42,743 nucleotides of DNA from positions 1 to 42,743 of the IMG/VR virus record IMGVR_UViG_3300028769_000017; one strand, written 5' to 3'. Shown here piece by piece: positions 2,346 through 11,861 of the stretch; positions within the stretch are counted from its first letter, which is position 1; every line of letters begins with the position of its first letter. The position numbers and the translations under genes were made by a program. This DNA comes from a virus. The notes below the pieces were generated by a model that had not been told where the DNA came from, made no database searches, and saw nothing but the letters and a program-made list of their open reading frames with translations.

Positions 2346-2527
2346 CCCGCCACCGCCTCATCAACTGGACCCTGGCCGCGCTCATTGCCCTGGGCTTGAG
2401 CTGCACTTACCTGCTGGATGGCCCCACCGAGCTTGACGCCATCCAGGCCACGGCAGACAGCGTTATCGACGCCCAAATAGCCGCCACCGCCGCCCACACC
2501 ACCCAACTCGCCATGGAGCAACCATGA
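2342..2527 (+). CDS. Small single-span membrane protein
   Basis: The 61-residue protein has one hydrophobic segment at about residues 8-25 (INWTLAALIALGLSCTYLL) after a short basic N-terminus, then an acidic and Ala/Thr-rich helix. It could be an inner-membrane protein or a poorly processed signal peptide; there is a Cys at the end of the helix but no clear lipobox. It overlaps both neighbours by four bases and is probably made together with the next small membrane protein. Function unknown. Confidence 0.6.
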   Translation: MTRHRLINWTLAALIALGLSCTYLLDGPTELDAIQATADSVIDAQIAATAAHTTQLAMEQP

Positions 2528-2751
2528 TGAAACCCTATCCCTTGCCAGACCGGCGCAAAACACCTCGCGCCGGGGCTACCCCCAGCCCCACCACCACCCC
2601 ACCCGAGGCGGGCAACGTGCAACTACCCGAGCCTGACGACATCTGGCGGGAGTTCCGCAACGAGCGCGTAGCCATCGCGGGTCTGGCGGGCTTTTTCTTT
2701 GGCCTGGGCTTCCTGTATGTGCTCACGCAGCCAATCTGGGGCACATCATGA
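2524..2751 (+). CDS. Small membrane protein with Pro/Thr-rich N-terminus
   Basis: The 75-residue protein has a proline/threonine-rich polar N-terminal half and a single transmembrane helix near residues 49-68 (VAIAGLAGFFFGLGFLYVL). The N-terminus is predicted in the cytoplasm with only a few residues outside. It is the second of two adjacent small membrane proteins and ends in an ATGA overlap with the next gene. No family is recognised. Confidence 0.6.
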   Translation: MMKPYPLPDRRKTPRAGATPSPTTTPPEAGNVQLPEPDDIWREFRNERVAIAGLAGFFFGLGFLYVLTQPIWGTS

Positions 2752-3071
2752 ACGGCGCCGTGCATACGTCTGCACAGGCTACTGCCTTGCTTGAGTACAC
2801 CGGCACGCTGGTCAAAGCAGCCGAGGCACGTAGCCGCTCCTCCGACCTAGAGGGGCACATGGTGCCCGTGCTTTATTGCGTGATCCAGCTAAACAACGCC
2901 CAGCGCACCCACCTGGTGGCCGAGCAACGCTTCCCAGCGGGTGCACATGACCAAGCCCAGGCCGCTGCCAGGCGCCTCAAAAAAGGCGCCCAAATCACCA
3001 TCCAGGCAGCAGTGTCAGACATCCGCCTTTTCGCGAGCAATGCAGCCCACATCCACGTCGTTCCAACCTGA
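2748..3071 (+). CDS. Conserved hypothetical protein, possible OB-like fold
   Basis: The 107-residue product has beta-rich segments (HMVPVLYCVIQL, THLVAEQRF, ITIQAAVSDIRLF) ending in the pattern NAAHIHVVP. The strand spacing is reminiscent of small phage single-strand-binding or OB-fold proteins ('.VPV..C.I.L....RT....E..F'), but I cannot confirm this. It overlaps the previous gene by ATGA and is followed by a 13-base gap. The position among early genes is compatible with a nucleic-acid role, which remains inference. Confidence 0.65.
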   Translation: MNGAVHTSAQATALLEYTGTLVKAAEARSRSSDLEGHMVPVLYCVIQLNNAQRTHLVAEQRFPAGAHDQAQAAARRLKKGAQITIQAAVSDIRLFASNAAHIHVVPT

Positions 3072-3084
3072 TTGAGAGATCGCC

Positions 3085-3357
3085 ATGGCATCAGTCACCA
3101 TCACCTTCACCGATACGCCAGACAAAACTGTGTCCGTCAAAACCGACGCTGTGCCCGCAGTCGGCAAGCCCCTAACTCCCGCCCAGGCTGCAGGCATGGA
3201 TGCCTACATCCGCGCATGCCATCAGTGGGGCCTCACTGCCGATCGACTGGCCAAGCGGCTCGACGCCGCCGCCGTTCAGATCGCCAACTACGGCACCACC
3301 GCCGAAAACAACCGCAGGCAATGCCACGGTGACCACGCCGCCAACCCCACCCTCTAA
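3085..3357 (+). CDS. Small hypothetical protein upstream of the DGR
   Basis: The 90-residue product starts with a beta hairpin (ASVTITFTDTPDKTVSV), then a helical region containing GMDAYIRACHQWGLTADRLAKRL. A ribosome-binding site (GAGA) precedes ATG 3085. It lies directly before the first DGR target gene and may be co-transcribed with it. No family or motif is recognised. Confidence 0.6.
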   Translation: MASVTITFTDTPDKTVSVKTDAVPAVGKPLTPAQAAGMDAYIRACHQWGLTADRLAKRLDAAAVQIANYGTTAENNRRQCHGDHAANPTL

Positions 3358-3387
3358 CCGCTTCACCCACCACCCAGAAAGCCAACC

Positions 3388-3777
3388 ATGTCCACTCAAA
3401 CCAAAACCCTGTCTATTTCCAATCTACCCGCCTTGGGTGAACCGCTTGAAGGCGGCATCTTTGCGGGCGTCATCACCACCAAAGACGGTGTGCACAGCGC
3501 TGTGATCCGCCTGCCAGGAAACGGCACCAGCCTCACGTGGAACAAGGCCATTACCTGGGCCAAGAAACAAGGCGGAGTGCTGCCCACTCGGCCCGTGGCT
3601 GCGCTGTTGTTTGCCAACATCAAGGCCACGCTGCCGAGCGGCTGGCACTGGACCAGCGAGGAAGACGACGCCTCTTGCGCCTGGTATTGCAACTTCGGCT
3701 ACGGCTACCAGAGCGACACCCGCAAGGGCTTCGGAGGTGGTGCTGTTGCCGTCCGCTTGATTCCCCTCATCGCTTAA
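3388..3777 (+). CDS. DGR target protein 1, C-type-lectin-like variable protein
   Basis: The 129-residue protein has the layout of DGR-diversified proteins. A beta-rich N-terminus is followed by a lectin-fold core (LTWNKAITWAKKQGGVLPTR, then LPSGWHWTSEE). It ends with the variable segment starting ASCAWYCNF and finishing GGGAVAVRLIP. The 'W.W[TS]SE...A.W' ligand-binding pattern is typical of C-type-lectin-like (CLec) variable proteins. Residues encoded by VR1 (3670-3756) would form the exposed binding face. It is paralogous to the next gene. There is no signal peptide or membrane segment, so how it reaches a surface (virion, or host envelope through a partner) cannot be read from the sequence. 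A role as a tunable binding protein is inferred from the family. Confidence 0.88.
   Translation: MSTQTKTLSISNLPALGEPLEGGIFAGVITTKDGVHSAVIRLPGNGTSLTWNKAITWAKKQGGVLPTRPVAALLFANIKATLPSGWHWTSEEDDASCAWYCNFGYGYQSDTRKGFGGGAVAVRLIPLIA
3670..3756 (+). repeat. DGR variable repeat VR1
   Basis: This aligns without gaps to the template repeat at 4841-4927 over 87 bases. It differs at 13 positions, every one an adenine in the template (8 A to G, 4 A to T, 1 A to C). All 62 non-adenine positions are identical. The last 20 bases (GGTGGTGCTGTTGCCGTCCG) are invariant and would hold the initiation-of-mutagenic-homing (IMH) site. Confidence 0.93.
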
Positions 3778-3806
3778 TTCTTCAATCCTTTTTTTTAGGA
3801 GCCACC

Positions 3807-4265
3807 ATGACCACCATCACCCTTGAAGCCATCGAGGCCAAACAAACCGAATTGAGCAAGCTGATTGCCCAGTTCAAAGCGGATGCCAATAAGCCAGTGC
3901 TCTGGCGCTATGCAGAAGCTGAAATTGAGCTTTTCCCAGGTGAGCGCTATGCCGGGCCGGTGCTCAACGAATCAGGCCATGTTGACCACCACTTGGTGCT
4001 GATGACTCAGCGGCCGCAAGGCAAGCTCACCTGGCAGGCCGCTATGGATTGGGCCGCCAGCATTGGCGGCTCGATCCCAACCCGCCAAGAGCAGGCCTTG
4101 CTGTACGCCAACTGCAAGCCACACCTCAAGCCCGAGTGGCATTGGTCTAGCGAGACACATGAGGAAGACGCCTCTGCCGCCTGGTATTGCGACTTCGGCA
4201 ACGGCTACCAGAACTACGGCCTCAAGAGCTACGGAGGTGGTGCTGTTGCCGTCCGTAGATTTTGA
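3807..4265 (+). CDS. DGR target protein 2, C-type-lectin-like variable protein
   Basis: The 152-residue paralogue of target 1 starts at ATG 3807 behind TTTAGGAG; a longer upstream frame only shadows target 1. It has an N-terminal helix (IEAKQTELSKLIAQFKA), a beta-rich part, then the lectin core (LTWQAAMDWAASIGGSIPTR, EWHWSSE) and the C-terminal variable segment AAWYCDFGNGYQNYGLKSYG ending AVAVRRF. VR2 (4170-4256) encodes the last 30 residues. The extra N-terminal helix is absent from target 1 and could attach it to a different carrier. It lies 40 bases before the Avd-like gene. Family assignment is strong; the ligand and location are unknown. Confidence 0.9.
   Translation: MTTITLEAIEAKQTELSKLIAQFKADANKPVLWRYAEAEIELFPGERYAGPVLNESGHVDHHLVLMTQRPQGKLTWQAAMDWAASIGGSIPTRQEQALLYANCKPHLKPEWHWSSETHEEDASAAWYCDFGNGYQNYGLKSYGGGAVAVRRF
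4170..4256 (+). repeat. DGR variable repeat VR2
   Basis: Gap-free 87-base alignment to the template shows 11 substitutions at template adenines and 2 at other bases: T to G in the third codon, and C to T at the last base. The adenine bias is the hallmark of mutagenic retrohoming. The two other changes are probably ordinary drift or lie at the edge of the exchanged tract. Confidence 0.92.
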
Positions 4266-4305
4266 GATTTAGTCCTTCAATCCTTTAACTGAGCCGCACC
4301 AAGTC

Positions 4306-4668
4306 ATGGCTTTGCACACCGAAATCCCAATTCACCGCACCGGTATCCGGCTGTTGGATCTGGCTATAAAAGCACAGGTTCAAATGCCGCGAACAGTCAA
4401 GCGGGCGTTGGGCGAGAAGATCACCCAGCACTGCGTTGAAATGCTGGACCTGATGGCCCTTGCCAATGCTACCCAGCACGAAACCCGCGCTAAGTACATT
4501 CACAAGCTGCTCGCTACCGAGCGCGCCATCACTGTCCTGCTGCGCGTCAGTCACGATGCCCGATACATCTCGCCCAAGCTCTGGGCTGAGTCCATCGAGC
4601 TGCTGGGCAGCATCGGGAAGCAAGCCGGTGGCTGGCTCAAGAAAACGAACAGGGCGCCTGCTGTATGA
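4306..4668 (+). CDS. avd: Avd-like DGR accessory protein (four-helix bundle)
   Basis: The 120-residue, all-helical, basic protein matches the size and pattern of DGR accessory variability determinant proteins: a start like IPIHRTGIRLLDLAIKAQVQMPRT, a helix ending KITQHCVEMLDLMALA, then ATERAITVLLRVSHDARYISPKLW. In known DGRs this pentameric protein binds the reverse transcriptase and the template RNA and is needed for cDNA synthesis. It lies between the second target and the template repeat, the usual place. Its stop (TGA 4666-4668) overlaps the ATG at 4665. The function is established for the family; membership is judged by eye from size, helices and position. Confidence 0.85.
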   Translation: MALHTEIPIHRTGIRLLDLAIKAQVQMPRTVKRALGEKITQHCVEMLDLMALANATQHETRAKYIHKLLATERAITVLLRVSHDARYISPKLWAESIELLGSIGKQAGGWLKKTNRAPAV

Positions 4669-6026
4669 CGGTCAAGGCCCTCACACCCGTGCGCACAGTG
4701 AATCTGGTCGCGCCGCTGGCCCACAAGGCCACCGACATGCACATCACAGACACCGCTGCACAAGTGCAGGCCCGGTCTGGTGCAGCCACCCACCTGATCG
4801 GCTCAGGCCTTCGGGTGGGCAGCCTCAATAGCGCGATGGTGCCTCTTACGCCTGGAATTGCAACTTCAACAACGGCAACCAGAACAACAACCACAAGAGC
4901 TACGAAGGTGGTGCTGTTGCCGTCCGCAGATCCACACCTGTTCTACCACCTGGTGCAGGCCTACCTTGATTGCCGTCGCACCAAGCGCAACAGCACCAGT
5001 GCCCTGGCTTTTGAGGCCCAGGCCGAGCACAACCTCTACCAGCTGTATGACGAGCTGTCATCCGGCACCTACCAGCCCGGGCGGTCTGTCTGCTTTGTGA
5101 TCACCCACCCCAAGCCACGCGAGGTGTGGGCGGCACGCTTCCGCGACCGCATCGTGCACCACCTGCTGTACAACCACATTGCGCCGCGTTTTCACGCCAG
5201 TTTTGTGGCCGACAGCTGTGCATGCATCCCCGGGCGCGGCACCCTCTACGCTGCCAAGCGGCTGGAGCACCAGGTGCGCAGCTACACCCACAACTGGAGC
5301 CAGACAGCGCACTACCTCAAGTGTGACCTGGCCAACTTCTTTGTGTCGATCAACAAGGCCGTGCTGCTGGAGCAACTGCAGCGCCGGGTGACAGAGCCGT
5401 GGTGGATGTCGCTGGCCCAAGTCATCCTGATGCACGACCCGCGCCAGGACGTAGAGGTGCGCGGCACCCCTGCCGAGCTGGCACTGGTGCCACCCCACAA
5501 GCGGCTGGCCAACGCACCCCAGGGCTACGGCCTGCCCATTGGTAACCTCAGCAGCCAGTTTTTTGCCAATGTGCTGCTGGACGATCTGGACCAGTTTGTC
5601 AAACACCGCATCGGTGCGCCGACTTACGTGCGCTATGTGGATGACTTTGTGCTGCTGCACCACAGCCCCCAATGGCTCAACCAAGCACGCAGCCAGATTG
5701 AGGCCAAGCTGACCACCCTTGACCTACAGCTCAACCCACGCAAGACCATCCTGCAGCCAGTAGCGCGCGGAATTGACTTTGTGGGCCACCTGGTCAAACC
5801 CTGGCGGCGCATCACCCGGCGCAAGACCATACATGTGGCGCTGGACCGCCTGCAAGACATGCCCGCTGCCGACCTGCACCCAGCCGCCAACAGCTACTTC
5901 GGCCTGCTACGCCAAGCCACCCACAGCCACCACGACCGCACCCGCATTGCCAAGCTGATGCTTAAGCGCGGGCATGTGGTTGCAGGCGATATGACCAAGA
6001 TTTACCGAAAGAAAGGCCAACCATGA
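4665..6026 (+). CDS. DGR reverse transcriptase
   Basis: This frame encodes a group-II-intron-like reverse transcriptase that copies the template-repeat RNA into adenine-mutagenised cDNA. Visible motifs are the RT-1 region (RFRDRIVHHLLYNHI), catalytic Asp about residue 221 (LKCDLANFF), the DGR-specific GLPIGNLSSQ at about 289-298 and YVDD at 324-327. The C-terminal basic thumb region ends at TGA 6026, which overlaps the parB start. ATG 4665 overlaps the avd stop, but recognised RT homology begins only near residue 88 (DPHLFYHLVQ). The first 87 codons cover the template repeat read in another frame. True translation may therefore start later (ATG 4836, or a GTG at 4908 or 4911). Assignment as a DGR RT is firm; the start is not. 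Confidence 0.93.
   Translation: MTVKALTPVRTVNLVAPLAHKATDMHITDTAAQVQARSGAATHLIGSGLRVGSLNSAMVPLTPGIATSTTATRTTTTRATKVVLLPSADPHLFYHLVQAYLDCRRTKRNSTSALAFEAQAEHNLYQLYDELSSGTYQPGRSVCFVITHPKPREVWAARFRDRIVHHLLYNHIAPRFHASFVADSCACIPGRGTLYAAKRLEHQVRSYTHNWSQTAHYLKCDLANFFVSINKAVLLEQLQRRVTEPWWMSLAQVILMHDPRQDVEVRGTPAELALVPPHKRLANAPQGYGLPIGNLSSQFFANVLLDDLDQFVKHRIGAPTYVRYVDDFVLLHHSPQWLNQARSQIEAKLTTLDLQLNPRKTILQPVARGIDFVGHLVKPWRRITRRKTIHVALDRLQDMPAADLHPAANSYFGLLRQATHSHHDRTRIAKLMLKRGHVVAGDMTKIYRKKGQP
4841..4927 (+). repeat. DGR template repeat (TR)
   Basis: The 87-base template holds 25 adenines, mostly in AAC codons relative to the VR frame, a codon choice that gives wide amino-acid variety without stop codons. 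Read in the VR frame it gives ASYAWNCNFNNGNQNNNHKS and then YEGGAVAVR. It lies between avd and the recognisable start of the reverse transcriptase, in the same orientation as both VRs. The surrounding transcript (avd end to RT start) would be the template RNA. Confidence 0.94.
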
Positions 6027-8236
6027 CCGCGCCATCCTCCCCCGCCAGTGCCATTGCCTTAACCGACCCCGTCACGCCCGCCGTGTGGGAGCTGGTGACC
6101 CAAGACGCTTTTGTGATTGCAGAGCTGCGGGCCATCGTCGCCAGCCTGACCAACCCACGCAAGACTTTTGACCCGGTCAAGCTCAAAGCCCTGGCCGACG
6201 ACATCGCCGAAAAAGGCATGCTGCAGCCCATTCTCGTGCGTGCCTTGCCCGGTAGCCGGATGGCCGACACAGACCGCCACGTGCACCTTGAAGTTGTCGC
6301 TGGCGAGCGGCGGTTCCGCGCTGCAAAACTGGCTGGGCTAGAGAGCGTGCCGGTGCTGGTGCGCATCCTGACCGATGACCAGGTGCGCGAGATTCAGCTC
6401 ACTGAAAACCTGCAGCGTGACGATTTGACCGAGCTGGAAGAGGCCGAGGGGCTTGAGCAGCTGATGCAGCACGCTGGCCTCACTGCTGACCAAGTGGGCG
6501 CCAAGATCAAACGCAGCCGCGCCTACGTCTACGCACGCCTCAAATTGCTGGATTTGTGCACCGAGGCTCGCACCGCCCTGCGCACCGGCGCCATTGATGC
6601 CAGCCGCGCCTTGCTGCTGGCCCGCATTCCAGACACCACCCTGCAGATCAAGGCGCTGGATAGCTTGAGCGCCAAGGATTACTCTGGCGATGTCAATCTG
6701 GGCTACCGTGCCGCCCAGGCCTTGATCCAGCAGCAGTACATGCTGCACCTGGACCGTGCCCCATTCAAGATCACCGATGCCAACTTGGTGGCCGAGGCGG
6801 GCAGCTGCAGGACGTGCAGCAAACGCACTGGCCACAACCCAGACCTGTTTTCTGACGTGCAAGGTGCAGACGTGTGCACCGATCCGCCCTGCTACCACCG
6901 CAAAGAAGAGGCCCACAGCGCCCTGATGCTGGCCAATGCCCAGGCCAACGGCCAGACCATCATCGAGGGCCGCGAGGCCAAGGCACTGATGCCCAACAGC
7001 TGGGGGGGTGTGGATGGTTATTTGCGCTTGGACGAAGTCCAAGACAGCCCCACCGACACGCCCCTGCGCAAGCTGCTTGACAAGCAGCTAGAGGCCGAGG
7101 GCATCAAGCCCACCTTGATCGCCAACCCGCACAAGGCAGGCGAGCTGATTGCCGTGCTGCCCAACACCCAGGTGGCCGATCTGCTCAAAGCCACCCAGCA
7201 CGCCGACGCCGCCGAGCGCGTGGCTGGCAACCTTGAGCGCAGCAAAAAGGCCGACGCCGAGCTTGAGAAAGCCAAAACCAAAACCGAGTACGAGCAAGGC
7301 TGGCGTACCCTGCTGCTGGAGCGCACATGGGCTGCCATCAAAAATGACGGTGAAGATCTTGGGCTGACCGACAAGGTGCTGCGCCACTTGGCCATGCACT
7401 TTGCCAACGTAGCCAACACCGACCGCGCCAAACGCCTGTGCCAGATCCTTGACCTGGGCAAGGTGGCGCCCAAGGCCGCGCTGATTGACTACATCACAGA
7501 CGCCGAGCGGCCACAAGACGTGCTGCAGCTGCTGATCATGCAAGCGGACGTCGAGTACCTGTCTTACATGGCCGAGCACTACCCAGACCGGCCGCAAAAC
7601 GTGGGCCTGATGCTGGTGGCGGCTGACTATGGTGTGGATGCCGATGCCATCAAAGCCGAGGTCAAGGCCAAGATGCGCCGCCAGGCAGCACCGGCCACCA
7701 CCAAAGACGTGATGTACCGCTGCCCCATGACCCACAGCACGTGGACAGGCCGTGGCCAAAAACCCAAGTGGGTGCAAATCCACCTTGAAAAAGGTGGAAC
7801 CCTTGAAGAGCTGCTGCAAGTGCCTCTACCCCTTACCCCCGCTGCGCAAGCGCAGGGTGTGGGTAAGGCGAAAAAACCAAAAACCACAGCTGCGCAAGCG
7901 CAGGCCCTGATTGCCGCTGCGCTGCAGGAAGCCCAGGGGTCCACTCCAGGCGCTGAAGCGCAGGGCAACAAAGCTGACAGTAGCCAGCCAGTAGCCACGT
8001 CCACCCCGCCCGTCGCTAGCGCTCCGGTCGTGGCGGGTGTGGCTCTGGCTGTGGATGCGCGTGTAGTGGTGACCAGTGACCTGGACAAGCTGCCGGTGCA
8101 CCACCACAAATGGGCCGGGAAGGAAGGCGTCATTCAGCAAAAGCTGGGTGCCGGGGCGTGGATGGTGAGCTTTCGTGGACGCAAGGGTGGACTAGCCAGC
8201 CTTGATCATTCTGAGTTGACGGTGGTGACGGCATGA
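6023..8236 (+). CDS. Large ParB-like protein with an H-NS-type DNA-binding segment
   Basis: The 737-residue protein carries a ParB N-terminal domain at about residues 43-180: the NPRKTFD box, GERRFRAAKLAG, LTENLQRDDL and a helix-turn-helix around LTADQVGAKIKRSRAYVYARL. A cysteine cluster follows (CRTC, then VCTDPPCYH, about 262-290), seen in phage ParB relatives. Around residues 564-590 MYRCPMTHSTWTGRGQKPKWV looks like the C-terminal DNA-binding domain of H-NS. An Ala/Gln-rich linker and a small beta-rich KOW-like end (HHKWAGKEGVIQQKLGAGAW) close the protein. No ParA gene is present, so nucleoid-like DNA organisation, replication or transcription control is as likely as partition. ATGA overlaps link it to the RT and to the next gene. 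Confidence 0.85.
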   Translation: MTAPSSPASAIALTDPVTPAVWELVTQDAFVIAELRAIVASLTNPRKTFDPVKLKALADDIAEKGMLQPILVRALPGSRMADTDRHVHLEVVAGERRFRAAKLAGLESVPVLVRILTDDQVREIQLTENLQRDDLTELEEAEGLEQLMQHAGLTADQVGAKIKRSRAYVYARLKLLDLCTEARTALRTGAIDASRALLLARIPDTTLQIKALDSLSAKDYSGDVNLGYRAAQALIQQQYMLHLDRAPFKITDANLVAEAGSCRTCSKRTGHNPDLFSDVQGADVCTDPPCYHRKEEAHSALMLANAQANGQTIIEGREAKALMPNSWGGVDGYLRLDEVQDSPTDTPLRKLLDKQLEAEGIKPTLIANPHKAGELIAVLPNTQVADLLKATQHADAAERVAGNLERSKKADAELEKAKTKTEYEQGWRTLLLERTWAAIKNDGEDLGLTDKVLRHLAMHFANVANTDRAKRLCQILDLGKVAPKAALIDYITDAERPQDVLQLLIMQADVEYLSYMAEHYPDRPQNVGLMLVAADYGVDADAIKAEVKAKMRRQAAPATTKDVMYRCPMTHSTWTGRGQKPKWVQIHLEKGGTLEELLQVPLPLTPAAQAQGVGKAKKPKTTAAQAQALIAAALQEAQGSTPGAEAQGNKADSSQPVATSTPPVASAPVVAGVALAVDARVVVTSDLDKLPVHHHKWAGKEGVIQQKLGAGAWMVSFRGRKGGLASLDHSELTVVTA
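7842..7960. repeat. Palindromic GC repeats inside the parB-like gene
   Basis: CTGCGCAAGCGCAG occurs at 7842-7855 and 7890-7903, and a shorter relative CGCTGAAGCG at 7951-7960. They encode the AQAQ-type linker. They could be low-complexity coding sequence or self-binding sites for the ParB-like product. Confidence 0.6.
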
Positions 8237-8622
8237 GCACAAAACCCCCAACCCCACGCCAGGCGCAGGTCATGGCCGCCCTGGACAAGCTGACCGAAAA
8301 GACCCGCGAGGCACTACTCACTGCCACCGGCCTCAGCCGCCAGATGCTTGACCGCGACCTGGAGCGGCTGGCTTACCACCGGCTGATCACCCGCGAGCGC
8401 ACCGGTCCAGACCAGCGCGGCGTGCTGCAGCTGGGCATCACCATGACAGGCCGCCGGGCAATGGCTGACTTTGAAGCGGCAAAGAACCATGTGGCACCGC
8501 AGCTGGTGCCACCCCGCCGTTTCTTCAGCAGCAGCATCGCCAAATGGCCCACCCAATCTGCTGATCCGTTCGTCCGCAACAACGGAAACCGGGACGTGCC
8601 CAGCCGAGGTGTCGGATGCTGA
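8233..8622 (+). CDS. Winged helix-turn-helix DNA-binding protein
   Basis: The 129-residue protein has a winged-helix pattern over residues 8-75: PRQAQVMAALDKLTEKTREAL, recognition helix TGLSRQMLDRDLERLAYHRL, then a beta wing (ITRERTGPDQRGVLQLGIT). The C-terminal 45 residues look unstructured and basic. It is transcribed after the ParB-like gene (ATGA overlap) and overlaps the next gene by seven bases. Likely a transcription regulator or a replication accessory protein; the target is unknown. Confidence 0.75.
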   Translation: MSTKPPTPRQAQVMAALDKLTEKTREALLTATGLSRQMLDRDLERLAYHRLITRERTGPDQRGVLQLGITMTGRRAMADFEAAKNHVAPQLVPPRRFFSSSIAKWPTQSADPFVRNNGNRDVPSRGVGC

Positions 8623-8972
8623 CCATCACCGTTCCCCAAACAAACCCACTTGGCCAGGCCATCAAGGCGCTGCGCGAGGGCGTGGCCACAGAGCAGCAAT
8701 GGCAGTGTGCTGCCACCGCTGTGGCGCTGGCCAGCAACCGCCAGAACAGCGTGCGAGGCCTGCAGGGGCACATTCGGGCAGCAGACCAAGCCCTGCAGGT
8801 TATCCATGCCAGCGCCCTGCACGCCGGTGGCGGGCGCTGGGCGTGCGTCGTCCCTCAGTTCCAGGAGCTCGACGCCCTGCAGACGTTCATGGATCTGCAC
8901 GAACTGCAGACCACCCAACCCCACCCCGCCCGCACCTGCCGTGCGCGGCATTTTGAAAGGCAAGCAGCATGA
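8616..8972 (+). CDS. Conserved phage hypothetical protein
   Basis: The 118-residue helical protein is of a type common in Burkholderiales prophages. It has an N-terminal [18 protein letters not shown] helix, a second helix [21 protein letters not shown], and a C-terminal segment [18 protein letters not shown] know of no assigned function. It starts inside the end of the previous gene and ends in an ATGA overlap with the HD-domain gene, so translation is probably coupled. Confidence 0.75.
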
Positions 8973-9508
8973 GCTCAGACATTCTCACCCGCGCAGGCAC
9001 CTATTTCGACTTCATGACCCCCGAGCGCAGCCACATCGACATCGACACCATTGCCCACGCACTGGCGCATATCTGCAGGTTCACCGGCCACACCAGCAGC
9101 TTTTACAGCGTGGCGCAGCATTGCGTGCTGGTCAGCCAATTGGTGCCGCCAGAGCACGCGTTGGCGGGCTTGCTGCACGATGCACCAGAAGCCTACATCG
9201 GCGACGTGGCCGCGCCGCTCAAGGCCCTGCTGCCCGATTACCAAGCCATCGAGGCCCGCGTAGAAGCTGCGGTGCTCGGGCATTTTGGTCTGCCTGCAAA
9301 GCTGCCGCCATGCGTCAAAGTTGCGGATCTTGTGATGTTGGCCACTGAGCAGCGCGACCTGATGCCCCCGCACGATGACACACCGTGGGACTGCATCGAC
9401 GGCATCCCAGCCCTTGCCCAAAACATCGTGCCCATGCAGCCCTATATTGCCCGCCAGATGTTTCTGGCGCGGTTTCATGAGCTGATGACCACACGGGGGC
9501 AAGCATGA
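8969..9508 (+). CDS. HD-domain phosphohydrolase (YfbR-like)
   Basis: The 179-residue protein has the metal-binding HD signature: His in [11 protein letters not shown] (about residue 49), HD in [15 protein letters not shown] (about 72-73) and a distal Asp in [12 protein letters not shown]. Proteins of this kind remove phosphate from nucleotides, as YfbR-type 5'-deoxynucleotidases do. In a phage, one could recycle host nucleotides or lower a signal nucleotide. The fold assignment is strong from the motif; the substrate is not readable. It sits in the tightly overlapping early operon. Confidence 0.85.
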
Positions 9509-9714
9509 CCACCGAAACCCTGGCAGATGCCCTACCCAAAGAGATGGCCCGAGTGCGTGAAGTGCTGGGCCACTATAAAGAAATCGGCCCCGCCGGAATG
9601 ATAGGCGCAGCCTTCATTGAGCAAGACCTGCGCGAGGCAGACCAAGCCGTCATGTCGGGTGACGTGATTCGAATGATCAGGTCACTAAAAACTTTGCAGG
9701 GCATTGAATCATGA
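9505..9714 (+). CDS. Small helical phage protein
   Basis: The 69-residue product is predicted to be entirely helical ([18 protein letters not shown], then [23 protein letters not shown]). Its pattern is one I associate with conserved prophage proteins of unknown function in Burkholderiales. It has four-base overlaps with both neighbours. No motif suggests an activity. Confidence 0.7.
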
Positions 9715-10055
9715 CCAATAAAAACAACCTGGTCGAGCTGACTGAAGTCAAATGCTACAAGGTCAAGGCCCTGGCCACTGGTAAAGAACTGCCGATGATG
9801 GTGGTGTCATCTGAGTGGAACGGCCTGCAAGAGCTGCGCACGATTGATGGCAAGCCTGACCAAATGCTGATCATTGCCTCATCAGAATTTGACGGACTGG
9901 CGGGCCGCGTGCGCGTGCTGCTGGGCGGCAATCCCGTCACCGCTGTGGTGCTCAAAGGCTCGCCCGACCTGCTGGCCAAGCTGCAGGAACAGCCAGCAGG
10001 CGACCACCTGCAATCCCACTCGAGCGAGACCGGTCCAGGGGGTCAATCATCATGA
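9711..10055 (+). CDS. Small hypothetical protein
   Basis: The 114-residue product alternates beta strands and short helices (VELTEVKCYKVKAL, LPMMVVSSEWNGLQEL, QMLIIASSEFDGLAGRVRVL, NPVTAVVLKG) and ends in a polar disordered tail. The two related segments, MMVVSSEWNGLQ and LIIASSEFDGLA, suggest an internal duplication. No family is recognised. It is translationally linked to both neighbours. Confidence 0.65.
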   Translation: MTNKNNLVELTEVKCYKVKALATGKELPMMVVSSEWNGLQELRTIDGKPDQMLIIASSEFDGLAGRVRVLLGGNPVTAVVLKGSPDLLAKLQEQPAGDHLQSHSSETGPGGQSS

Positions 10056-10246
10056 GCCCGACACAACTGCGCCAAATCGCAGACGCACGCCTGACCACCA
10101 GGCGCAAAGCCACCTGGGCCGAACAGGCCGAGCAGGCCCTGAGGTCCGCCGCCATCGAGCTGGAGCGCGTGCTGCGCGAGCAGCAAGCCCGCCAGCCGAT
10201 GGCGTTGCGGTCGTATGGCGGCGACACCGGGGGAGTGGCACTGTGA
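10052..10246 (+). CDS. Small coiled-coil-like hypothetical protein
   Basis: The 64-residue protein is mostly one long Ala/Glu/Arg-rich helix (TWAEQAEQALRSAAIELERV) with coiled-coil character and a short Gly-rich end. It overlaps the previous gene by ATGA, and its stop overlaps the GTG start of the HNH gene. It may be a partner of a neighbour; nothing more can be said. Confidence 0.6.
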   Translation: MSPTQLRQIADARLTTRRKATWAEQAEQALRSAAIELERVLREQQARQPMALRSYGGDTGGVAL

Positions 10247-10944
10247 CCAAATCCCGCAACGTCAAAGCGGCCAGGCACACTTGGACCGCCGACGAACTGG
10301 CCGTGATTCGGGCGCAGTACGCCAGCAAAATAACGTCAGAGATAGCCGCACAACTGGGGCTGCCAGTGCACCTGGTGTACAGCAAGGCCAACAGAATGGG
10401 GTTGACCAAAGGCGCCGACTTTCTTGCTACCAGCAAATCAGGTCGCATCCTCAAGGGTGGCAAGCTGGGGCAGGCCAACCAGTTTGTTCCTGGCCAGAAG
10501 CCTTGGAATGACGGGCTCAAAGGCTTCCAAGCCGGGGGCCGCAGCGTCGAAACCAGATTCAAGCCGGGCAACTCACCGCACACCACGCTGCCGGTGGGTG
10601 CCTACCGCATTGTTACGCACTGCAAAGGCTCCAAACACCTGGAGCAGAAAACCAGCGAAGCCAAGGGCGGCAATCACATGCGCTGGACCCCTGTGAGCCG
10701 CCTGGTTTGGGAGAAGGCAAACGGCCCTGTTCCGCGAGGGCATGTTGTCGTATTCAAACCCGGTCAAAGCACCCTGGTGCTTGAGCAAATCACCATTGAT
10801 CGACTGGAGTGCATCACCCGGCGCGAGTTAGCCAGGCGCAACCACCCCAATAGTTCAAACCCAGCTTTTGCCCGCCTGATCCAGCTCAAAGGCGCCATCA
10901 CCCGTCAAGTCAACCGTATCCAAAAGGAGAGCCTTGCACCATGA
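10243..10944 (+). CDS. HNH endonuclease-like protein with N-terminal helix-turn-helix
   Basis: Translation starts at GTG 10243, which overlaps the preceding TGA; an upstream in-frame extension would cross three other genes. The 233-residue protein has an N-terminal SANT/Myb-like segment (HTWTADELAVIRAQY, ITSEIAAQLGLPVHLVYSKA). A C-terminal HNH_3-like core follows (MRWTPVSRLVWEKANGPVPR, GHVVVFKPG, then LECITRRELARRN). In canonical members the position after GHVV is His-His or His-Lys with Asp; here it is VFKPG, so the metal site may be altered or inactive. Such genes act as homing nucleases or packaging partners; here the location is the early operon. Confidence 0.8.
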   Translation: MTKSRNVKAARHTWTADELAVIRAQYASKITSEIAAQLGLPVHLVYSKANRMGLTKGADFLATSKSGRILKGGKLGQANQFVPGQKPWNDGLKGFQAGGRSVETRFKPGNSPHTTLPVGAYRIVTHCKGSKHLEQKTSEAKGGNHMRWTPVSRLVWEKANGPVPRGHVVVFKPGQSTLVLEQITIDRLECITRRELARRNHPNSSNPAFARLIQLKGAITRQVNRIQKESLAP

Positions 10945-11243
10945 CCACAGAAAACACACCTCACATCGACCAGGTGCGCAACGCTTTGCTGGCCACACTC
11001 GCGGATCTGCGCGACCGCACCAACCCCATGGATCTGGACCGCGCCAAGACAGTGGCAACCGTGGCCAGCGTGCTGGTGGATACTGCCCGGGTCGAAAACG
11101 ACTACCTCAAGATCACTTGCCAAGACAGCAGCCAGTTTCTGCAGCAGCCTCCACCGGCAGCCGATGGCCAAGAATCCACCACAGTGCAGCCAGGTGACCG
11201 CAACGGCATTACGTCGATCACTCAGCACAAGCTCAGGGGTTGA
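10941..11243 (+). CDS. Conserved phage hypothetical protein
   Basis: The 100-residue protein has the pattern of a small helical family often seen beside HNH genes in Burkholderiales prophages: VRNALLATLADLRD, then MDLDRAKTVATVASVLVDTA and RVENDYLKI, followed by a disordered polar tail. Function unknown. ATGA overlap with the HNH gene. Confidence 0.7.
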   Translation: MTTENTPHIDQVRNALLATLADLRDRTNPMDLDRAKTVATVASVLVDTARVENDYLKITCQDSSQFLQQPPPAADGQESTTVQPGDRNGITSITQHKLRG

Positions 11244-11245
11244 TC

Positions 11246-11494
11246 ATGATAGGCACACAACCCGAAGGCACCATCAGCAATGTCGTCATCAGCGCCGTCT
11301 CACACGAGGGGCTGAGCGTCACCGTGAATGGCAAACCGGCCAGGCTGGCCATTCTTGCGGACGATGGCCAGATCATTGCCGAAGGAATCCAGGTGGCCAA
11401 AGAAGCCGAGGCCGTGGCGCTTAACTGCTACCGCAACTTCCTCAAAGGTCAAGGCTATCTGCGCGTCAACAGCGAGCTGATTGCGACCAAGTAA
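11246..11494 (+). CDS. Small hypothetical protein
   Basis: The 82-residue protein starts at ATG 11246 behind AGGGG; an alternative TTG at 11240 overlaps the upstream stop. It has a beta-rich N-terminal half (ISNVVISAVSHEGLSVTVNG, PARLAILADDGQIIAEG) and a C-terminal helix with a conserved-looking CYRNFLKGQGYL. No family is recognised. Confidence 0.65.
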   Translation: MIGTQPEGTISNVVISAVSHEGLSVTVNGKPARLAILADDGQIIAEGIQVAKEAEAVALNCYRNFLKGQGYLRVNSELIATK

Positions 11495-11546
11495 ATCAGG
11501 CACGGTCACCGCCTGTCTATGGTGGCCAATACATCTAGGAGAACCC

Positions 11547-11726
11547 ATGCCAGAGAAATTTAAGTTCAAACTGAATGAACCAGTGACCATTGCGGCAAGC
11601 GGTGAGCAAGGCATCATCATTGGCCGAGCCGAGTATGTTCACAGCGAAAACAGCTACTTGCTCCGCTACAAGGCGGCAGATGGCCGCGCACAAGAAAGCT
11701 GGTGGACCGAGAGCGCGCTGAAATAG
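11547..11726 (+). CDS. Small KOW-like beta-barrel protein
   Basis: The 59-residue product has the look of a small SH3/KOW barrel: FKLNEPVTIAASGEQGIIIG, RAEYVHSENSYLLRYKAADG, then a WWTESAL end. Similar short phage proteins are common and uncharacterised. A clear Shine-Dalgarno (TAGGAGA) precedes ATG 11547. It is the last gene before the operon terminator at 11747. Confidence 0.75.
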   Translation: MPEKFKFKLNEPVTIAASGEQGIIIGRAEYVHSENSYLLRYKAADGRAQESWWTESALK

Positions 11727-11746
11727 CCAGGCACACCACCAAATGA

Positions 11747-11772
11747 AAAGCCCGCTTGAAGCGGGCTTTTTT
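11747..11772 (+). terminator. Rho-independent terminator of the rightward operon
   Basis: AAAAGCCCGC, a TTGAA loop, then GCGGGCTTTTTT form a perfect GC stem with a T-run, 20 bases after the last gene stop. The A-run on the other side would let it work leftward as well. Confidence 0.92.
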
Positions 11773-11861
11773 ACGTCTGCAATGATGGTTTATATTAACT
11801 ATCTTTAGCGCATCCTAGCGATACCATACCTATACGCGGTCGTTTTTCTATTGTTTCAGTC
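11773..11861. other. AT-rich gap before the integrase, candidate attP and promoter
   Basis: This 89-base gap is much richer in A/T than its surroundings. It contains short repeats (TAGCG twice at about 11806-11820, and ATACC/TATAC motifs at about 11820-11836). Large serine integrases usually have attP next to their gene, so this is the best place for it, with the downstream flank as the alternative. No core site can be defined from one sequence. Confidence 0.35.

What the first reader, a model, noticed from the sequence alone, without database searches (positions are those of the whole stretch)
3388..6026. Complete diversity-generating retroelement with two target genes in a temperate phage
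Seen: two VRs, an Avd-like gene, one TR and an RT with YVDD and the DGR-type IGNLSSQ motif, all on one strand. VR1 differs from the TR at 13 of 25 adenines and 0 of 62 other bases; VR2 at 11 adenines and 2 others. Known: this adenine-only pattern is diagnostic of mutagenic retrohoming. Inference: the element is, or recently was, active.
Basis: partly seen in the sequence, partly recalled or inferred. Interest (0 to 1): 0.92.

Follow-up and report, generated by a model that had tools for sequence, protein, structure and literature searches.

The report
Phage gene cassette rewriting two lectins
A bacterial virus carries a reverse-transcriptase cassette that keeps rewriting parts of two small lectin-like genes; it is a known kind of system, but its template RNA and its target sites are built differently from the textbook example, which gives new handles on how such systems start copying and find their targets.

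Summary
In detail: a complete diversity-generating retroelement (DGR) lies at 3388-6026. TR-VR1 differences are 13 adenines and 0 others; TR-VR2, 11 adenines and 2 others. Activity is shown by near-identical phages: over 6,476 bp, L004 and L005 differ at 14 of 52 TR-adenine VR sites, 1 of 126 other VR sites and 0 of 6,298 sites outside.

(1) The TR sits inside the RT open frame, 7 nt before the RT domain; there is no room for the 3' spacer that folds and primes in BPP-1. Instead a 192-nt structured RNA, Rfam RT-15 (E 3e-42), lies directly 5' of the TR; its pairs covary in 50 relatives. (2) An unpaired RT-15 element is complementary to the TR's 3' edge with lineage-specific covariation, the best of 11,232 registers scanned; I propose it positions cDNA priming. 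(3) VRs are followed by an 8-bp tandem array (88 of 99 held-out flanks) and mostly lack the BPP-1 hairpin (none in this window). (4) The targets are small C-type-lectin proteins in the early region. (1)-(3) are sequence evidence; priming and array function are inferred. Whether RT-15 was linked to DGRs before could not be checked.

The parts
3388..3777 (+). target gene 1, 129-aa lone C-type-lectin-like protein, VR1 near its C-terminal end
   Evidence: ORF; phrog_4245 3.9e-5; Lcl_C only 0.065, below cut-off; fold not modelled
3670..3756 (+). VR1
   Evidence: 13 A-only differences to the TR
3776..3791 (+). 8-bp tandem array after VR1 (AATTCTTC AATCCTTT), candidate target-site element
   Evidence: one of only two hits >12 bits on both strands of the window
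3807..4265 (+). target gene 2, 152-aa C-type-lectin-fold protein with an N-terminal helix
   Evidence: Lcl_C 1.5e-5, below curated cut-off; AF2 pLDDT 95.6; best PDB match 8q4e Lcl C-terminal domain, E 5.5e-5
4170..4256 (+). VR2
   Evidence: 11 A + 2 other differences to the TR; 14 of the 15 VR differences between window and L005 lie here
4271..4286 (+). 8-bp tandem array after VR2 (AGTCCTTC AATCCTTT)
   Evidence: the other of the two hits >12 bits in the window
4306..4668 (+). avd, accessory variability determinant
   Evidence: PF22296 6.8e-11; phrog_3206 9.3e-24
4652..4843 (+). RT-15 RNA (RF03018): structured 5' leader of the template RNA, ending 3 nt inside the TR
   Evidence: 169.6 bits, E 3e-42, model 1-192 of 192; covariation in 50 relatives
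4698..4706 (+). unpaired leader element GTGAATCTG, proposed to pair with 4927-4935 (8 of 9 pairs)
4841..4927 (+). TR, inside the RT open frame
4927..4935 (+). TR 3'-edge element CAGATCCAC, partner of 4698-4706
4665..6026 (+). RT open frame (453 codons); the folded domain starts near residue 85-92 (~4917-4938); residues 1-84 lie over RT-15 and most of the TR
   Evidence: pLDDT <50 for residues 1-84

Best explanation
This is an active phage DGR of a lineage whose template RNA is organised the other way round from BPP-1. The transcript carries a 5' structured leader (RT-15), then the TR, then almost at once the RT coding sequence. The leader folds and binds RT and Avd; its unpaired GTGAATCTG-type element pairs with the TR's 3' edge and closes the TR into a loop. 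That duplex sets where cDNA synthesis starts, so the TR is copied with errors at adenines. The cDNA replaces a VR whose 3' side is marked by an 8-bp tandem array instead of, or beside, the hairpin that BPP-1 needs; the TR lacks the array and so is not overwritten. The diversified products are small C-type-lectin-fold proteins encoded in the early/lysogeny region. Shown by sequence: VR rewriting in nature (one rewritten tract spans at least 4176-4234), leader position and structure, leader/TR covariation, array and its specificity, rarity of the hairpin, fold of target 2. Inferred: binding of RT and Avd by the leader, priming at the duplex, array as recognition mark, RT translation starting after the TR, non-tail role of the targets.
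For: Activity. RT-15 ends 1-3 nt inside a TR with adenine-biased VRs in 7 of 8 genomes over the family's cut-off, out of 399 genomes not chosen for DGRs; RT-15 is in 42 of 44 records tested from the RT relatives. Structure: 91.7% of cells paired against 80.3 +- 0.4 in shuffles; 37 of 56 pairs with changes on both sides; 311 such cells against 97 (0 of 500 shuffles). TR end to RT domain: median 7 nt (-1 to 33; 50 loci) against medians 151 (143-186) and 175.5 (139-756) in two classical groups. Leader/TR 3'-edge pairing: positions 7-9 paired in 117 of 150 cells against 77.8 +- 4.4 permuted, 0 of 5,000; distinct haplotypes 79 of 108 against 51.3 +- 3.8; other registers 31-69 of 150; overlapping 8-nt windows of this helix are top by z and by paired fraction of 11,232 registers. 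Array: lag-8 autocorrelation 0.395, z 22, against 0.20 after TRs and 0.23 before VRs; 88 of 99 held-out flanks against 3 of 1,980 shuffles; 87 of 94 whole-locus hits lie after a VR.
Against: No wet-lab data. Permutation tests do not remove relatedness (the haplotype test only thins it); registers unrelated to the helix reach z 6.4 in the same scan, at paired fractions of 0.29-0.58. The duplex has an unpaired position in most loci and starts with only 2-4 continuous pairs in L029, L036, L038, L048, L056, L062 and L063. L057 has the RT but neither RT-15 nor a detectable TR; L072 has a partial RT-15 without RT or TR. Synonymous change in RT codons 1-45 is mildly low (0.40-0.42 against a mean of 0.46; other stretches go to 0.37), so some 3' RNA function is not excluded. 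In the flanks lags 1 and 4 are also raised (z 9 and 11), and 11 of 99 held-out flanks miss the array. The array could serve something other than targeting. RT-15 may already be known as a DGR RNA: Weinberg 2017 and Wu 2018 were not held.
Confidence: 0.75

Rival explanations
1. The RT is translated from ATG 4665 (overlapping the avd stop), so RT-15 and TR are coding sequence for an N-terminal extension, and leader conservation is protein conservation.
For: The frame is open through the TR in 48 and through the leader in 43 of 50 non-redundant loci; tblastn aligns residues 1-450 or so in many relatives; the ATGA overlap with avd allows translational coupling.
Against: Leader differences by codon position 0.162/0.163/0.203, nearly flat, against 0.145/0.128/0.366 in the RT domain (65 pairs); 7 of 50 frames are closed; residues 1-84 model at pLDDT <50 (only the first row of that alignment covers them, so this is weak); base pairs covary.
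Confidence: 0.12
2. An ordinary BPP-1-type DGR with a 3' spacer and a hairpin target; the differences are trivial.
For: Same kind of RT, Avd, adenine mutagenesis and C-type-lectin target fold.
Against: No room for a 3' spacer (median 7 nt); Phage_DGR RNA (BPP-1) and RT-14 (BalMu-1) both lie 3' of their TRs, RT-15 lies 5'; GNNA-loop hairpin in 27 of 31, 16 of 38 and 5 of 5 classical flanks but 3 of 99 here; any GC-rich stem of 6 or more in 25 of 31, 18 of 38, 5 of 5 against 18 of 99; none in the window.
Confidence: 0.1
3. RT-15 is a cis-regulator (attenuator or translational control) of the RT gene and not part of the template RNA.
For: Rfam lists it only as 'RT-15 RNA, Gene; sRNA'; it lies 5' of the RT domain.
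Against: It ends 1-3 nt inside the TR in 7 of 7 TR-bearing genomes found by RNA search, and its unpaired element covaries with the TR's 3' edge.
Confidence: 0.12
4. The 8-bp array is an expression signal (terminator, RBS control) of the target operon, not a retrohoming element.
For: It overlaps the stop codon of target 1 and lies just before the next gene; window copies contain TCCTT, complementary to Shine-Dalgarno-like sequence (reading).
Against: It follows VRs and not TRs; it follows third VRs in other genes, and in L049 (VR 5049) it lies inside a 241-aa frame; the TCCTT core is not kept in many deeper relatives.
Confidence: 0.25

Closest known systems
Bordetella phage BPP-1 DGR (AY029185)
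   Same: RT, Avd, TR/VR, adenine-only mutagenesis, VR at the 3' end of a target gene; C-type-lectin target fold (Mtd's fold recalled)
   Different: BPP-1: TR directly after avd, 144 nt before brt, Phage_DGR RNA (RF03022) 3' of the TR, hairpin after VR, tail-protein target. Here: 172 nt of RT-15 5' of the TR, 7 nt after it, no hairpin, 8-bp array, early-region targets.
Rfam RF03018 RT-15 RNA
   Same: full-length match, 169.6 bits
   Different: The Rfam description in the output does not name DGRs; here it is tied to the TR edge.
Burkholderia phage Magia DGR (MT701587)
   Same: 60% RT identity, Avd-like gene, three VRs in small genes, two of which its annotators noted as lectin-fold possible DGR targets, RT-15
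   Different: RT frame not open through the leader; the third VR gene is annotated hypothetical; deposited RT start at 13066 of L059, still 5' of the TR.
Bacteroides/gut phage DGRs (L086, L095, L097, L098)
   Same: RTs join the RT-15 group with 100/99 support in a midpoint-rooted tree; TR end to RT match 30-70 nt; 8-bp-spaced array in L095 and L098; possible leader/TR duplex in L086 and L098
   Different: no RT-15 match in L086, L095, L098 (L097 not scanned); long stem branch (1.26)
Retrons (msr-msd-RT)
   Same: order of structured 5' RNA, then template, then RT (retron order: PMC8867640, one passage)
   Different: cDNA replaces a VR with adenine errors; RT family is DGR-like

Membership tests
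Diversity-generating retroelement | DGR-type reverse transcriptase | tested here: met
   phrog_1423 3e-110; IGNLSSQ and YVDD (motif meaning recalled); best solved relative 8ub7; groups with other phage DGR RTs in a tree that had no non-DGR outgroup
Diversity-generating retroelement | TR/VR pair differing at TR adenines | tested here: met
   41 of 41 viral relatives; 18 of 20 further loci
Diversity-generating retroelement | VR rewritten while surroundings stay fixed | tested here: met
   L004/L005 14 of 52, 1 of 126, 0 of 6,298; L034/L035 14 of 35, 0 of 72, 6 of 2,536
Diversity-generating retroelement | accessory protein (Avd or HRDC) | tested here: met
   NF033474 43 bits, below its cut-off of 80
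Diversity-generating retroelement | C-type-lectin fold around the VR | tested here: met
   for target 2; target 1 by weak profile hits only
Diversity-generating retroelement | mutagenic cDNA synthesis and retrohoming by experiment | not testable with these tools
   needs bench work
BPP-1-type DGR | structured 3' spacer between TR and RT | tested here: not met
   7 nt in the window; -1 to 33 nt in 50 loci
BPP-1-type DGR | GC-rich hairpin with 4-nt loop after the VR | tested here: not met
   none for VR1 or VR2 (stem 6 or more); 3 of 99 lineage flanks with GNNA loop, 18 of 99 with any stem of 6 or more
Rfam RF03018 RT-15 | score over gathering cut-off (82 bits) | tested here: met
   169.6 bits
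Retron | RT of a retron family and msDNA product | tested here: inconclusive
   retron St85 RT model 45.9 bits against a cut-off of 235, so not met by that profile; msDNA not testable; only the RNA order is alike

The most novel reading that the evidence does not exclude
DGRs come in two RNA architectures: the BPP-1 type, with a 3' priming spacer, and a 5'-leader type, found here (RT-15) and perhaps in gut Bacteroides-type phages. In the second a structured leader pairs with the TR's 3' edge to prime cDNA synthesis, in retron-like order, and targets are marked by tandem 8-bp repeats rather than by a hairpin; a related array of 7-8-bp repeats may be a wider, overlooked DGR target element (lag-7 z 10.8 in 38 flanks of a gut-phage group, though not seen in 31 BPP-1-like flanks). 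In this lineage the DGR diversifies lone lectins of the lysogeny/early region, so it serves something other than tail tropism.
Probability: 0.5. Interest if true: 0.75.

Novelty: new variant of a known kind. Interest (0 to 1): 0.62.

Why it matters
If right, it gives a second, compact DGR RNA design: one transcript in which the priming structure, the template and the RT follow each other directly, with a duplex that can be tested by compensatory mutations. It would give a function to an Rfam family that is listed only by its neighbour gene. It shows VRs rewritten in nature without the hairpin that was proposed as a conserved requirement (PMC3240598, passages), and offers a short sequence mark as the alternative. 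The early-region lectin targets raise an open question: what a temperate phage gains from diversifying proteins that are not obviously part of its tail.

Tried and rejected
Coding explanation of the leader: tested by codon position, open frames and fold, not supported. A 3' RNA element inside the RT gene: synonymous change only mildly lower in codons 1-45, no clear signal. Remote targets in the host: in one host genome (G027, Limnohabitans) the TR and three prophage VRs match strongly; six further hits have E 0.07-0.9; the VR-end + array pattern occurs once in each of 4 of 5 host genomes, at a known VR by coordinates, with no control hit. Plasmids: no RT match at 1e-60. Defence RT: NCBIfam hits are far under their cut-offs and PADLOC (25 of 77 families shown) gives many RT families at once. 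Generality of the array: of 156 classical loci fetched I scanned 139; 123 had a VR, 74 flanks were non-redundant. Group D (38 flanks) lag 7 z 10.8 and lag 8 z 5.1; group V (5 flanks) lag 7 z 3.8; BPP-1-like group B (31 flanks) z 0.8 and -3.6 at lags 7 and 8 (lag 6 z 4.6), so not universal. In ten named classical flanks the octamer matrix itself finds nothing (best dimer below 0 bits in each), though L088 has an 8-bp repeat of another sequence. First hairpin scans were too strict for classical loci and were replaced; the new one still misses stems with a mismatch. Group V TR-RT distances are an artefact of my truncated query; one search gives 141-152. A scan with a Bacteroides-type RT found no relative. 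An uninterrupted-run statistic for the leader/TR duplex was weaker (5.38 against 5.15 +- 0.09, 20 of 2,000) than the position-wise one. Rows dropped: near-copies (60 to 50 RTs; 127 to 99 flanks), flanks under 60 nt, L057 (no TR) and L058 (spurious pair) before the RT set, 17 partial classical loci.
Full report
Observation. The window is one virus record of 42,743 bases. The DGR is as described: two VRs, avd, TR and RT on the + strand. The 87-nt TR has 25 A; VR1 differs at 13 of them and nowhere else, VR2 at 11 plus two other sites. The TR lies within the RT open frame (4665-6026) and is read there in another frame than in the VRs.

Activity. All 41 viral contigs with a related RT have at least one TR/VR pair with mainly or only adenine differences, and so have 18 of 20 further loci from genomes and named phages, the exceptions being L057 and L058. 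Near-identical phages give the direct test. Between the window and L005 there are 15 differences in 2514-11811, 1 in VR1 and 14 in VR2, none elsewhere; 35 more lie in 1089-2513. L005's VR2 carries the TR base at 4176, where the window does not, yet has the same non-TR T at 4256, so, if L005 is the rewritten one, the tract covers at least 4176-4234 and stopped before the last base. L004/L005: 14 of 52 TR-adenine VR sites, 1 of 126 other VR sites, 0 of 6,298 outside; L034/L035: 14 of 35, 0 of 72, 6 of 2,536; L021/L035: 15 of 36, 1 of 73, 160 of 5,036. Apart from window/L005, the other ten pairs of that table are near-copies with at most one VR site and six outside sites different, and they show no rewriting.

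Template RNA. Rfam RT-15 (RF03018) matches 4652-4843 over its full 192 positions at 169.6 bits, E 3e-42, ending 3 nt into the TR. It is present in 42 of 44 records tested (44 of my 61 relatives were given). In the other direction, 399 genomes of one bacterial family, not chosen for DGRs, gave 8 over the cut-off; in 7 of 8 RT-15 ends 1-3 nt inside a TR with adenine-biased VRs, and 0 of 6 sub-threshold hits have a TR. Three of those eight (L065, L067, L071) were already known from the RT search. On a 50-sequence alignment the Rfam structure pairs in 91.7% of cells (80.3 +- 0.4 in shuffles; 33-39% with slid partners), 37 of 56 pairs having changes on both sides. In BPP-1 the Rfam family Phage_DGR lies 3' of the TR, at 4813-4945 of L079, and in BalMu-1 RT-14 lies 3' of the TR; the other 12 classical loci scanned had no Rfam match at the gathering threshold. 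So this lineage has its structured RNA on the other side, and from TR end to RT domain only a median of 7 nt, against 151 and 175.5 in two classical groups.

Leader to TR contact. In BPP-1 the spacer folds and recruits bRT-Avd, and an internal adenine of the spacer primes cDNA synthesis at the 3' junction of the TR (PMC12875486, one passage). If the 5' leader does this job it should reach the TR's 3' edge. An unpaired, well conserved leader element (window 4698-4706) is complementary to 4927-4935 in 8 of 9 positions. The inner five pairs are nearly constant and so prove little, and they are partly coding in the VR. Positions 7-9 vary and covary: 117 of 150 cells pair against 77.8 +- 4.4 when TR edges are dealt out among loci (0 of 5,000); with each of 36 distinct combinations counted once, 79 of 108 against 51.3 +- 3.8; shifted registers give 31-69 of 150. 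I noticed this by eye, so I then scanned all 11,232 8-nt registers between leader and TR edge: overlapping windows of this helix rank first by z (9.4) and by paired fraction (0.86). Registers outside it reach z 6.4, but at paired fractions of 0.29-0.58, which shows how much relatedness alone can give. The length of the uninterrupted run gave a weaker result, 20 of 2,000 permutations as high. A free fold of the window's leader + TR does not contain this duplex (minimum -106 against -71 kcal/mol for the Rfam structure plus duplex; adding the duplex to the Rfam structure gains 2.3), so its case rests on covariation. In the gut group, L086 and L098 have 8- and 9-nt complements (0.05 and 0.007 of shuffles as good); L095 and L097 do not stand out (0.21 and 0.55).

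Is the leader protein? Unlikely. Codon-position differences are nearly flat in the leader (0.162, 0.163, 0.203) and strongly periodic in the RT domain (0.145, 0.128, 0.366); 7 of 50 frames are closed; the model has pLDDT under 50 for residues 1-84 and confident structure from about 90 on, though the other alignment rows did not cover that stretch. TR overlap with the annotated RT is itself known as 'group 3' of DiGReF (PMC3521204, section 13).

Target site. PMC3240598 (passages) found a hairpin after the VR critical in BPP-1 and proposed it as a conserved requirement. The window has none. Hairpins with GNNA loops: 27 of 31 BPP-1-like, 16 of 38 gut-phage group and 5 of 5 VHML-like flanks, but 3 of 99 in this lineage; any GC-rich stem of 6 or more with a loop of 3-5: 25 of 31, 18 of 38, 5 of 5 and 18 of 99. 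Instead VRs here are followed, a median of 11 nt after the match ends, by a tandem octamer close to ARTCMTTY, scored as 2 (61), 3 (35) or 4 (3) copies by a method that assumes at least 2. Lag-8 autocorrelation is 0.395 (z 22) with a harmonic at 16 (z 9); lags 1 and 4 are also raised (z 9 and 11); 54 of 99 flanks match in 8 of 10 consecutive positions at lag 8, against 0-5 at lags 5-7 and 9-11. A matrix trained on other loci finds it in 88 of 99 held-out flanks (3 of 1,980 shuffles); scanned over whole loci (640 kb, both strands), 87 of 94 hits lie after a VR, and three of the other seven start at a VR's edge. In the window only two hits exceed 12 bits, one after each VR (matrix trained with the window included). 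In L049 the third VR is internal and the array lies inside the reading frame, which speaks against a terminator. Gut-phage DGRs of another group show repeats 7-8 bp apart between VR and hairpin (lag 7 z 10.8, lag 15 z 8.3); the BPP-1-like group does not.

Targets and place. Target 2 models with pLDDT 95.6 (the other four models 79-83) and matches the Lcl C-terminal domain (8q4e, E 5.5e-5), then animal C-type lectins and a Bdellovibrio protein at E above 0.001. The 123 target frames have a median of 153 aa, counted from the first ATG. The DGR sits with an HTH regulator, a ParB-like gene and a serine integrase on the + strand, whereas the head, tail and lysis genes identified are on the - strand. 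By their annotation five relatives (Magia, QDWS, Cruim01, phPA-G, Haboob) have the DGR in the early region near repressor, recombination or integrase genes, and LPPA56 has it near its integrase; L064 has no annotation there. Of 20 classical named records examined, 13 have tail, baseplate or structural genes annotated beside the DGR; the other 7 have no informative label or a doubtful one. Roux 2021 (PMC8144416, sections 8 and 9) links phage DGR targets of three clades mostly to tail proteins and leaves many targets unknown. I cannot exclude that these lectins are mounted on virions.

Lineage. In a 47-RT tree, midpoint-rooted and without a non-DGR outgroup, the RT-15 RTs form one group (with L057 inside it) next to the gut group L086/L095/L097/L098, 100/99 support for both together.

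Novelty. The DGR itself is a member of a known kind. New as far as I could see: the 5' position of the RNA tied to the TR, the leader/TR duplex, and the array with hairpin loss. Searches of the paper library for RT-15 with RT or DGR terms and for direct or tandem repeats with DGR terms gave no such report (of I saw listings of 15 of 69 and 12 of 21 papers, and read passages of four), but key papers are not held, so earlier description is possible. The 2025 BPP-1 RNP structure paper is recalled, not seen.

Noticed in passing
window ~11818 against L005: Window and L005 are nearly identical up to about 11818, just before the serine integrase gene (11862), then unlike in ungapped comparison; L004 stays alike to 12023, where it ends. 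This looks like integrase-module exchange.
   Followed up: no
window 2476-2513: Six differences in 38 bp, shared by L004 and L005 against the window, in otherwise identical sequence: local exchange or assembly error.
   Followed up: no
L016, L017, L027, L040, L047, L049, L050, L053, L054, L059, L061: A third VR lies 0.4-8 kb from the nearest other VR, in most of them with an 8-bp array by eye (weak in L053).
   Followed up: partly
L080, 5795-5938: Rfam RT-14 lies at the 3' side of the TR in Bacillus phage BalMu-1, so RT-14 looks like its DGR spacer RNA.
   Followed up: partly
L057, L072: L057: RT of this lineage without detectable TR or RT-15; L072: partial RT-15 without RT. Probably decayed elements.
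   Followed up: no
window 6023-8236: ParB-like protein with an H-NS C-terminal domain in the same frame, directly after the RT.
   Followed up: no
L060 and OP650936.1: The 'Hujiaoplasma phage zrk29-1' record has the same length and RT identity as Shewanella phage vB_Sb_QDWS; host labels conflict.
   Followed up: no
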